DNA from: an uncultured Pseudomonadota bacterium
Lineage (GTDB): Bacteria > Myxococcota_A > UBA796 > SXON01
Assembly (NCBI GenBank): GCA_903875225.1
Contig: CAIQVJ010000028.1
Coordinates: forward strand, 124,001 to 188,000
Direction of reading: 5' to 3'
DNA length: 64,000 nt
Both the position numbers and the translations under genes were made by a program. This document shows positions 8,925 through 11,383 of this stretch, piece by piece. Under the pieces are notes generated by a model that did not search any database, was not told where the DNA came from, and was given only the letters and a program-made list of their open reading frames with translations. Positions within the stretch are counted from its first letter, which is position 1; the number at the start of each line of letters is the position of its first letter.

Positions 8925-9665
8925 TCACCCGCCGGAGTTCATGCCCGTGTCACCGGTGCTGCCATCGGAGGGGTCGGAGCCGCCGCCTGTGTCCGCGCCG
9001 GTATCCGCGGTCGGCTCGGTCGGGTGCTCGACCACCCCGGTGTCGTCCTGCCGCATCTCCGGGGAGCCCGGATCGAGCGATACCGTCACGTGGTAGCTGC
9101 AATCGGCGCTGCTGATGGCGAGCTGGCCGACGGCGTGGTTCTCGGGGTAGATGGTCGCCTCGAGGGTGGCCCAGGCTTCGCCCGCCTGCGGGGGACGATC
9201 AGCACCGCCGGAAGGCTGGCCTCCGTTGCTGGAACCGCTGGAGCCCGAGCTCGATCCGCCGCGGCCCGCAGGCGCGCCGGTGTCCGCATAGTCGACGTCC
9301 CCCTCCGCAGGCCGGGTGGTGGGCGGTTCGTCTTCGGCCGGAGGAGAGAGCAGCGAGCCGGAGACGGTGAGCGAGCCCGGGTACATGTTGCCGCGGAGCA
9401 TCACGCCCTGAAGGTTGAAGGTGACCCCGCCGCCCTCCATCCCGTGGCCGGCGGTGAGGACGCCCCAGGCGACCTGACCCTGGAACTCCTGTGGGGACGC
9501 GCCGCGGCACTGCGCGTCCTGCACGGAGACGACGGTGACCTTGTAGTCGCCGCCGTCGAGAACGGGTCCGGGCTCGCCCCTGGGCTCGCTGGGCATGGGC
9601 TCCGGGCTGGGGGCGCAGGAGTTGGCGGAGAGCGCGAGGACGACGATGGCGATGATGAGAATCAT
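8925..9665 (-). CDS. hypothetical lipoprotein with low-complexity Gly/Ser/Asp linkers
   Basis: This encodes 246 residues. The N-terminal hydrophobic stretch MILIIAIVVLALSANSC ends at a plausible lipobox Cys (C17). Residues 35-110 form a beta-rich module with MEGGGVTFNLQGVMLRG; a Gly/Ser/Pro linker (140-165) leads to a second short beta module (165-205). The end is a Thr/Gly/Asp tail like those of other secreted proteins in this window. No known domain is recognised. Upstream lie a near-consensus sigma-54 element (9695-9711) and a perfect 7-bp inverted repeat (9713-9736), suggesting conditional expression. Confidence 0.7.
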   Translation of the reverse strand: MILIIAIVVLALSANSCAPSPEPMPSEPRGEPGPVLDGGDYKVTVVSVQDAQCRGASPQEFQGQVAWGVLTAGHGMEGGGVTFNLQGVMLRGNMYPGSLTVSGSLLSPPAEDEPPTTRPAEGDVDYADTGAPAGRGGSSSGSSGSSNGGQPSGGADRPPQAGEAWATLEATIYPENHAVGQLAISSADCSYHVTVSLDPGSPEMRQDDTGVVEHPTEPTADTGADTGGGSDPSDGSTGDTGMNSGG

Positions 9666-9876: not shown

Positions 9877-9915
9877 AAAACGGAGAACCCCCCGCACGCT
9901 TGCGCGTACGGGGGG
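9877..9915 (-). terminator. intrinsic terminator at the 3' end of the structured RNA
   Basis: On the minus strand, CCCCCCGTACGC pairs with GCGTGCGGGGGG around a GCAA loop (9888-9915), a 12-bp stem with one G-U wobble. The wobble is allowed only on the minus strand; the plus strand would have a C-A mismatch. It is followed by TTCTCCGTTTT (9887-9877), the expected U-rich tail. This sets the probable 3' end of the RNA. Confidence 0.65.
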
Positions 9916-11221
9916 CAGACACCGGTTTTCACCGAACAGTTTTTGGAGACCCGCGTCACGCCGATCCTTTCGGACCACCGCGCCGCGCGAATGAAGTTCA
10001 GAAGAGAAGTGCAGTACGGCCGCACCCGAAGACGCGAACCGACCCACCCCGCGAGATTTGCTACGTTTGACCTTCCAGGACCAGACCCGACTTCAGCGGC
10101 ACCGTATGGCTTGGGTGCTCCCCGGCATGAGGTTCTCGACTGGTGTGTGCACCGAAGTGCGCATCGCCCGTTGTTCCTCTGCCCGGAGTTCAGGGTCCAC
10201 CGTCCGGCACGTCCACTCCCGAAGGAGCGGGCATCGCCGCGTGTACCCCGCGCTGACGTCGAGCTGGGAAGAGATGCTTTCACACCTGTTCCCTGCCCTG
10301 CGTGGCCTTGAACGTCCGGCTGACCGACCTTTCGGTTGATCGTGCTACGTCGATTTTTCAATCGAATCGCCCGGAATCCGCAATCGATCCGGTTTCCCGG
10401 CTCGCCTGCGCGCTCATCTCCCTGCCCGGTGGAACCGGACAGTGACCCTTCACGCGTTACCGCATGAAGCGCTTTCCTCTGCTTGCATTTTCCAAAGATC
10501 GCCCCTTCGTCGCTCCCGAATCGTCGAGTCCACTCCCAAACCGGATTGCTCCGGTTCTTCGTCGGTCGGCCGCTACGCCTCCCGCCCGTTCCGACCTTGT
10601 GGTTTCACACCACTTCGCCGGCTTACTCCTCGTCGATCCTGTCCGCACTGTTGCAGCGGCTCACGACCCTGGGGTTCATCGTCGTTTCACCCGCGCCTCC
10701 AAAACCGAAGTTCCGATGGCTGCTCCTATAGAAGCTGCGAGATTCCCGCGATGCGTTTCTGCCCTTCGAAGCTTTCCCTCCGCCGATAGCTGTAGTCGCT
10801 GGACGCTGTGGAGGCACCTTGCGATGCGCACCGTCCATGCGGGGAGGCTCTCACCTCCTGCCCGGTTGTCACCCTGCTCTGCTGCTCGACTTGCGCCGAG
10901 CCTTGAAGCCTGCGAATCCTGTCATCCCGAAGGACCCTCGAATCCGCACCCGAAACGCTCACGCGCTCCGAAAGTTCACCAGCCGCCTTGCCGCCTCGTC
11001 CTTCGGGTGTCATGGGAAGTTTCCTTCTCACTTCACTCGCGAACCTCGCGGTCTTTCTCCATCGTCGGGTCCGTTGCGCGATCGCCGTTTCCAGCTCTCG
11101 TGCCCGGTGCTCCCGTGGGCTTGGGCTCCTCCTGCTTTCGCAAAGAGGAGTCAGTACGTCAAAGATAGGTTCTTGCGAACCCGCCTTTCGGCATTGACCG
11201 TTCGGCTTTCGCCGGTGTCGT
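9877..11221 (-). ncRNA. candidate giant structured non-coding RNA, about 1.35 kb, family unknown
   Basis: No credible protein is encoded here on either strand; short frames are Arg/Ser/Pro-rich shadows like those seen opposite rRNA. The minus strand folds locally into many tetraloop hairpins. GNRA loops cap stems at 11203-11214, 11183-11192, 11168-11181, 11126-11150, 11016-11027, 10949-10972 (10 bp), 10843-10858, 10539-10556, 10389-10400, 10350-10365, 10327-10336, 9962-9977 and 9888-9915. UUCG loops cap 10924-10935, 10699-10716, 10213-10230, 10149-10160 and 10021-10036. Several stems contain G-U pairs that work only on this strand. The predicted sigma-54 start at 11221 falls just before the first hairpin, and a terminator closes the 3' end. 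It is not recognisably rRNA, RNase P RNA, tmRNA or a group II intron. Its size and ornament recall OLE, ROOL and GOLLD, but no shared sequence was recognised. Confidence 0.75.
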
Positions 11222-11230
11222 GGGGGTCCT

Positions 11231-11248
11231 AAGCAAGCGCCGTGCCAA
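11231..11248 (-). promoter_or_regulatory. perfect sigma-54 (RpoN) promoter for the structured RNA
   Basis: The minus strand reads TTGGCACGGCGCTTGCTT, matching the full -24/-12 consensus (TTGGCACG, four bases, TTGCT) with the required 10 bases between GG and GC. With the C at -12 (11233), transcription would begin at A11221, seven bases before the first hairpin. Sigma-54 promoters need an ATP-driven enhancer-binding activator, consistent with the paired dyads upstream. Confidence 0.8.
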
Positions 11249-11289
11249 CGCCCTCCGAACAGATGAACGCCGGTTTTGATGCAGCATCA

Positions 11290-11307
11290 TGGGAAATGCA
11301 GATCCCA
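11290..11307. promoter_or_regulatory. proximal 18-bp dyad, candidate enhancer (UAS) site 1
   Basis: The sequence fits TGGGA-nn-TGCA-nn-TCCCA, a dyad symmetric at all fixed positions. Its centre is about 77 bp upstream of the predicted start of the structured RNA. A near-identical dyad lies 76 bp further upstream. The DNA between them is unusually AT-rich for this window (11349-11363), which may favour bending. Confidence 0.55.
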
Positions 11308-11365: not shown

Positions 11366-11383
11366 CGGGATCTGCGATTCCCA
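11366..11383. promoter_or_regulatory. distal 18-bp dyad, candidate enhancer (UAS) site 2
   Basis: The sequence fits CGGGA-nn-TGCG-nn-TCCCA, the same pattern as the site at 11290-11307 with two changes. Its centre is about 153 bp upstream of the predicted RNA start and 82 bp upstream of the divergent dioxygenase ATG, so it could serve either direction. Confidence 0.5.

What the first reader, a model, noticed from the sequence alone, without database searches (positions are those of the whole stretch)
9877..11221. Giant, tetraloop-rich non-coding RNA of about 1.35 kb
Seen: no credible ORF, yet the minus strand contains about 18 local hairpins capped by GNRA (GAAA, GCAA, GAGA, GTGA) or UUCG loops within 1.35 kb. 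The best is the 10-bp stem with a GTGA loop at 10949-10972. Known: such loops are typical of large structured RNAs (rRNA, OLE, ROOL, GOLLD). I recognise no rRNA, RNase P, tmRNA or group II intron signature. Inference: this is a new large ncRNA class or a very diverged member of a known one.
Basis: partly seen in the sequence, partly recalled or inferred. Interest (0 to 1): 0.95.

Follow-up and report, generated by a model that had tools for sequence, protein, structure and literature searches.

The report
Sigma-54-switched giant structured bacterial RNA
A 1.35-kilobase stretch of DNA that codes for no protein belongs to a widespread family, matching no catalogued RNA family, of predicted very long folded RNAs in Myxococcota bacteria; it is predicted to be switched on through a sigma-54 promoter and likely works as a free-standing structural RNA particle, which would add a new kind of large RNA to bacterial cells.

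Summary
Observation confirmed. The minus strand of 9877-11221 holds 25 GNRA/UUCG hairpins against 1.6 in shuffles and none on the plus strand, and codes for no protein. Its 100-nt core has relatives in 65 of 377 sampled genomes of the phylum, own included, and in none of 148 further Vicinamibacteria. Over 95 distinct sequences 97.9% of core pair cells pair, 310 with two-sided changes against 76 in shuffles; 17 of 39 family-level helices covary. No Rfam family matches at cut-off, in the window or 16 homologous loci. The gene looks like a discrete unit: sigma-54 promoter (39 of 41 loci of the order; controls 5 of 253), TGGGA-N8-TCCCA dyad 37-43 nt before it (29 of 40), terminator-like hairpin (44 of 76; controls 1 and 10 of 76). 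Copies are often multiple, without a fixed neighbour. Outside the order the sigma-54 site is often missing. Function and activator are unknown; I favour a trans-acting structural RNA particle. Transcription of this locus is untested.

The parts
9877..11221 (-). giant structured non-coding RNA, predicted +1 at 11221, predicted end about 9877 (1345 nt)
   Evidence: hairpin excess; homologues; covariation; non-coding
11366..11383 (-). distal upstream dyad TGGGAATCGCAGATCCCG (predicted activator site)
   Evidence: 118 nt before the promoter; a second dyad at -116 to -118 in 12 of 14 loci of this family
11290..11307 (-). proximal upstream dyad TGGGATCTGCATTTCCCA (predicted activator site)
   Evidence: 42 nt before the promoter; dyad at -37 to -43 in 29 of 40 loci of the order; background 0.07 hits per 300 nt over 857 stretches
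11233..11248 (-). sigma-54 promoter TTGGCACG-GCGC-TTGC (-24/-12)
11156..11165 (-). conserved 5'-domain box TCTTTGACGT
   Evidence: TTTGACGT in the first 500 nt of 36 of 51 RNAs
10588..10687 (-). most conserved core: three covarying helices, motif CCGKCGRRG..TGNGAAA..CRRGGNCGGAAC
10778..11070 (-). domain closed by long-range helix 11070-11056 / 10793-10778 (14 bp, 7 covarying pairs, 89% of cells paired)
10502..10674 (-). domain around the core closed by helices 10674-10671 / 10505-10502, 10667-10663 / 10513-10509 and 10639-10629 / 10528-10517
   Evidence: the last with 81% of cells paired
10121..10260 (-). 3' domain, helix 10260-10249 / 10132-10121 (12 bp, 8 covarying pairs, 73% of cells paired)
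   Evidence: weakly supported, no excess stability of the aligned 3' half
9877..9916 (-). terminator-like hairpin of 13 bp with GCAA loop followed by TTCTCCGTTTT
   Evidence: a standard scan misses it because the T tract is interrupted, but finds one at this place in G002 and in 44 of 76 loci

Best explanation
This is the gene of a predicted 1.35-kb, highly structured non-coding RNA that is predicted to be transcribed from a sigma-54 promoter under an enhancer-binding activator, and that likely acts in trans as a structural RNA particle (a folded scaffold or multimer, alone or with protein). Shown by sequence: strand, core secondary structure with covariation, promoter and dyad motifs at fixed spacing, terminator-like hairpins, more than one copy in many genomes, no recurrent neighbour gene, no coding signal. 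Predicted: an unknown activator binds the two TGGGA-N8-TCCCA dyads and opens the sigma-54 complex when a signal arrives, so the RNA is off by default and made in a burst, often from several loci. Inferred only: the product is needed as a bulk folded object rather than as a template or a leader, by analogy with OLE, ROOL and GOLLD.
For: Structure and strand. Discrete transcription unit. Promoter apparently dedicated: of 61 dyad + -24 hits in 63 genomes of the order, 30 stretches were fetched and checked; the 11 with a -12 element are all this RNA (10 by the CTTTGA box, the eleventh cut by its contig end), the 19 others lack a -12 element. Stand-alone: no neighbour family in more than 6 genomes. 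Multi-copy: two or more core matches in 21 of 65 carrier genomes, further copies at contig ends. In 6 of 7 within-genome pairs of the window's family the promoter plus RNA is 94-100% alike while flanks beyond -150 are unrelated. CTTCGG, GGCAAC and AACCCCA enriched family-wide.
Against: No RNA-seq of a carrier, no mutant, no structure; the only RNA-level hint is a probably chimeric contig (L060). The sigma-54 site is missing in 11 of 11 loci of family f9 and 22 of 35 loci outside the class's other families, and in 2 of 41 of the order, so the switch is not universal; no dyad at the proximal place in 11 of 40 order loci and 13 of 13 others with a promoter. 30 of 63 genomes of the order had no core match, some for assembly breaks (e.g. 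G006). Near-identity of copies is not general: G044 copies are 71% alike, G002 holds two types, 63% alike, and four of the six near-identical pairs are short contig ends, where assembly favours identity. The aligned 3' half shows no excess stability. The dyad + -24 pattern as such is not enriched (61 hits, reversed control 110); only the -12 element separates real sites. An 11-nt tetraloop receptor pattern occurs in 0 of 51 RNAs. The activator is not identified; RtcR does not track the RNA. Particle or multimer formation is untested.
Confidence: 0.5

Rival explanations
1. Protein sponge: the RNA carries repeats of a short motif or loop that titrate an RNA-binding regulator, as CsrB does for CsrA (recalled).
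For: AACCCCA 42 observed against 2.3 expected in 36 RNAs, at least two copies in 13 of 36; CTTCGG 105 against 16.4.
Against: AACCCCA averages about one per RNA (42 in 36); long-range helices and a nearly invariant core go beyond what a bead string needs.
Confidence: 0.17
2. Large catalytic or RNP-enzyme RNA (a new ribozyme or the RNA half of an enzyme), the conserved core being the active or protein-binding site.
For: A 100-nt core with near-invariant unpaired letters and a stretch of 55 to 2080 nt between promoter and core.
Against: No recurrent partner gene; no match to a ribozyme family at cut-off.
Confidence: 0.15
3. Trans-acting base-pairing regulator of mRNAs made under sigma-54 control.
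For: Conserved, apparently unpaired boxes such as TCTTTGACGT; sigma-54 controlled pairing sRNAs are known (recalled).
Against: Predicted size of 0.95-2.7 kb (25 loci) and elaborate conserved fold are unlike pairing sRNAs.
Confidence: 0.1
4. Selfish or mobile RNA element that spreads as a multi-copy unit.
For: Scattered multi-copy distribution, copies at unrelated sites.
Against: No neighbour family recurs in more than 6 genomes; the 15 recurrent neighbours that I read look like ordinary cellular genes by eye, not by a search; the promoter layout is conserved over the order.
Confidence: 0.05
5. Diverged member of a known RNA (GOLLD, ROOL, OLE, rRNA, RNase P, group II intron) or a protein gene.
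For: Similar size class and tetraloop richness.
Against: 0 Rfam matches at cut-off in the window and 16 homologous loci, only two weak scores in a permissive scan; flat mismatch phases.
Confidence: 0.03

Closest known systems
GOLLD RNA
   Same: very large structured bacterial ncRNA of unknown function; many exceed 800 nt (passages of PMC12286853)
   Different: no Rfam match; in the loci examined it lies in bacterial genomes, not phages (one probable chimera, L060); no tRNA in the window or in 21 of 24 loci scanned; sigma-54 promoter; predicted 0.95-2.7 kb
ROOL RNA
   Same: large ornate RNA without identified protein partner; forms an RNA-only nanocage (passages of PMC12286853)
   Different: no Rfam match, phage context not seen, longer, sigma-54 promoter
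OLE RNA
   Same: large, highly structured ncRNA; dimeric (abstract of PMC12286853)
   Different: about 600 nt, Gram-positive hosts, part of a ribonucleoprotein (abstract of PMC9723947 in the listing); here no recurrent neighbour gene was found
Sigma-54/bEBP-controlled small RNAs (recalled)
   Same: -24/-12 promoter with upstream dyads
   Different: the product here is far longer and elaborately folded

Membership tests
GOLLD / ROOL / OLE | match to the family's Rfam covariance model | tested here: not met
   0 matches at cut-off; (window RNA, permissive): only P11 (E 0.057) and proV (E 0.98), both far under cut-off
GOLLD / ROOL | phage or prophage context, often near tRNA islands | tested here: not met
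   no tRNA in the window, tRNA in 3 of 24 loci; none of 8 window neighbours hits a phage structural or replication family (3 hit families of unknown function or metabolism); the other loci were not scanned for phage genes
GOLLD / ROOL / OLE (works like) | homo-oligomeric RNA particle | not testable with these tools
   needs native gels or cryo-EM
Sigma-54 regulated gene | TGGCAC-N5-TTGC promoter | tested here: met
   full score in the window; 39 of 41 loci of the order, 13 of 35 others, 0 of 11 in f9
Sigma-54 regulated gene | upstream enhancer dyads at fixed spacing | tested here: met
   29 of 40 loci of the order at -37 to -43; 0 of 13 loci outside it
Sigma-54 regulated gene | dependence on RpoN and a bEBP | not testable with these tools
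   needs a mutant; own genome has 31 PF00158 matches, none within 40 kb on the contigs with copies
RtcR regulon | RtcR present wherever the RNA is | tested here: not met
   RtcR in 24 of 60 genomes; no match in carriers such as G002, G019, G020, G044, G047
Protein-coding gene | codon-phase substitution pattern, gaps in threes | tested here: not met

The most novel reading that the evidence does not exclude
The largest stand-alone structured RNA class known in bacteria (to 2.7 kb): a sigma-54-switched RNA particle of Myxococcota, assembled from near-identical transcripts of several loci, which would be a stress- or development-induced RNA-built cell structure.
Probability: 0.25. Interest if true: 0.97.

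Novelty: categorically new. Interest (0 to 1): 0.87.

Why it matters
Few RNAs of this size and complexity outside the ribosome are known in bacteria, and their functions are open. This one comes with a strong handle: a predicted on/off switch (sigma-54 plus a two-dyad enhancer), many natural variants predicted from 0.95 to 2.7 kb sharing one core, and a phylum with culturable, developmentally complex members. It makes the question of what giant structured RNAs do directly testable.

Tried and rejected
Known RNA: Rfam at cut-off for the window and 16 loci, permissive for the RNA: rejected. Protein gene: rejected. Internal repeat modules as the cause of length variation: self-comparison of 16 RNAs and a second look with the core model in 16 loci found no second core. 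Conserved neighbour or host operon: none beyond 6 genomes; a small lipoprotein-like gene recurs in 6 loci of a distant lineage (names by eye). RtcR as activator: rejected. Phage-borne copy: L060 looked like an RNA phage carrying the RNA, but the same phage (L216, 99.87% over 3974 nt) starts at L060 base 1321 without it, and blastn of L060 against 48 related contigs gives no match before base 1321, so L060 is most likely a chimera. Its middle part reminded me of 23S rRNA from memory; searches did not confirm that. L264 was a chance hit in a protein-like stretch. 11-nt tetraloop receptor pattern (recalled motif): 0 of 51 RNAs. Rows dropped: searches use only loci with promoter score of at least 24 and more than 300 nt between promoter and core, which leaves out L118 and L042 (promoter 55 nt before the core) and sites scoring 22-23; one search keeps one RNA per genome, 36 of 48; one search uses 12 of 14 family RNAs, all 14. 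L106 (17 nt upstream) was dropped from the dyad count. In one search the printed window coordinates are one too high; I use those.

Full report
OBSERVATION. The minus strand of 9877-11221 carries 25 hairpins with GNRA or UUCG loops and stems of at least 4 bp; 500 dinucleotide shuffles give 1.6 +- 1.1 (maximum 6) and the plus strand has none; the fold is 7.4 standard deviations more stable than 20 shuffles.

NOT A GENE FOR PROTEIN. Seven pairs of homologous RNAs (66 to 93% identical) show flat mismatch phases (window against G002: 88, 91, 93) and 7 of 103 gaps in multiples of three. Mechanical ORFs exist but the substitution pattern gives them no support.

A FAMILY. The RNA has two further partial matches in its own genome, both running into contig ends, so at least one more copy, and a full-length relative in G002 at 77%. 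By DNA alone 14 of 58 genomes match, own included, a few of them weakly. An exact 30-letter core pattern hit 18 records in the collection of 84,980 species genomes: 9 titled Deltaproteobacteria, 5 proteobacterium or Proteobacteria, 3 Myxococcales or Myxococcota, 1 Vicinamibacteria. A covariance model of the core (21 sequences) matches 33 of 63 genomes of the order, 39 of 71 of the class and 65 of 377 spread over the phylum, own included, under the tool's stricter filters; 21 of those 65 have two or more matches, G068 six (some weak). These are lower bounds: G001, G003, G004 and G006 have promoter and 5' end at contig ends but no core match. As a negative control, 148 other genomes of the Vicinamibacteria class have none, so the L042 contig is probably transferred or misbinned.

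STRUCTURE. In the 21-sequence core alignment 97.8% of 314 pair cells are standard pairs, 43 with changes on both sides (shuffles 13.9; partners slid by 1-3 columns 0-7). In 96 matches, 95 distinct, aligned to the model (which leans towards it), 97.9% of 1413 cells pair and 310 have two-sided changes (shuffles 76.0, slid 15-49). Weaker measures: 28 of 500 shuffles reach the number of pairs with a two-sided change, 12 of 500 the number of pair types, and one closing pair fails in 23 of 91 sequences. For the whole RNA, 12 family members give consensus-fold z of -4.2 to -10.1 in six of the first seven 160-column windows (the other -0.8), in these seven better on the sense strand than on its complement, and +0.1 to -1.9 in the last six, where the alignment is poor. 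With 14 members, 17 of 39 helices have at least two covarying pairs and over 85% paired cells, among them long-range helix 11070-11056/10793-10778. Window against G002 alone: of 445 predicted pairs 283 are unchanged, 39 kept through double changes, 32 through single changes, 59 broken, 32 gapped; slid partners keep 1-6 through double changes.

TRANSCRIPTION UNIT. All 11 copies compared in the genus share TTGGCACG-N4-TTGC followed by CGACACCGGCGAAAGCCG. With a simple -24/-12 score, 39 of 41 loci of the order with at least 700 nt upstream have a site, 13 of 35 other loci (L118 and L042 among them, with the site 55 nt before the core), 0 of 11 in family f9; control stretches 5 of 253. In one search, 29 of 40 loci of the order with a promoter and enough upstream sequence have a TGGGA-N8-TCCCA dyad (8 of 10 letters or better) ending 37-43 nt before the -24 box; 12 of 14 in the window's family have a second at -116 to -118, and 11 others one at -157 to -167; 0 of 13 loci outside the order do at the proximal place. 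A search for dyad plus -24 in 63 genomes gave 61 hits, the reversed control 110; 30 of the 61 were fetched: the 11 with a -12 element are all this RNA, the other 19 lack one. Terminator-like hairpins lie 300-1000 nt after the core in 44 of 76 loci, against 1 of 76 further downstream and 10 of 76 on the other strand; the scan misses the window's own because its T tract is interrupted. Twenty-five loci with both ends predict RNAs of 955 to 2705 nt, median 1486. In the window, C of the -12 GC at 11233 places +1 at 11221.

COPIES AND CONTEXT. No neighbour family recurs in more than 6 genomes. In 6 of 7 within-genome pairs of the window's family the promoter plus RNA is 94-100% alike over 128-452 nt while flanks beyond -150 are unrelated; four between-species pairs are 73-88% alike. 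This suggests homogenisation as in rRNA operons, but four of the six are contig ends of 128-160 nt, where identity is partly by construction; the seventh pair, two types within G002, is 63% alike, and two G044 copies are 71% alike.

TRANSCRIPT EVIDENCE. L060, a 5.3-kb IMG/VR contig, has the core at 562-661 (76 bits) upstream of an RNA phage in the same sense (Phage_mat-A, RNA_replicase_B). Such phages have no DNA stage (established knowledge), so the contig presumably comes from RNA; the join is most likely a chimera because L216 lacks it. It is indirect evidence that a family member is transcribed.

MECHANISM. Shown: motifs, strand, fold, unit. Predicted: an unknown bEBP at the dyads switches on sigma-54 transcription. 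The own genome has 31 PF00158 matches, the nearest on the window's contig 42 kb away, none on the two other contigs with copies; RtcR is excluded by its distribution. Inferred: a trans-acting structural RNA. The argument is size, elaborate conserved fold, lack of a partner gene and multiple copies; the analogy is GOLLD, ROOL and OLE, which form homo-oligomers (passages of PMC12286853). Sponge, RNP enzyme and pairing regulator remain open.

NOVELTY. Seven searches of open papers for such an RNA found no description in their listings; one paper, PMC11109978, was searched for Myxococc, Sorangium, Haliangium and Deltaproteobacteria, 0 occurrences in the main text. Most subscription papers, and preprints, were not covered. 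I rate it categorically new as an RNA class; that it may work like the large ornate RNAs is a separate, untested matter.

Noticed in passing
L060:1-1320: Contig of an RNA phage with the core of this RNA near its 5' end; most likely a chimera, since the same phage in L216 lacks it.
   Followed up: yes
L042 and L118: The sigma-54-like site lies only 55 nt before the core, which would give a variant without the 5' domain; L042 is titled Vicinamibacteria.
   Followed up: partly
5' domain of L097, L101, L106, L130, L150, L030, L031: The TTTGACGT box extends to the self-complementary TTTGACGTCAAA in 7 of 51 RNAs, a possible dimer-forming site.
   Followed up: no
window 11250-11285 minus strand, and the same place in other loci: A further stretch resembling GAAAA-N-CGGCGTTC-N-CCGT recurs by eye between the proximal dyad and the promoter, perhaps another factor's site.
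   Followed up: no
L054, L055, L116, L123, L125, L131: A small lipoprotein-like gene of unknown function recurs near the RNA in this distant lineage.
   Followed up: partly
families f9 and f16 (e.g. L153, L160): The core is kept, several f16 loci keep a CTTTGA box and a terminator-like hairpin, but no sigma-54 site was found; another promoter must be used.
   Followed up: partly
window 8925-9665 minus strand: Lipoprotein-like ORF without a Pfam or PHROGs match just downstream of the RNA on the same strand, beyond the terminator.
   Followed up: no
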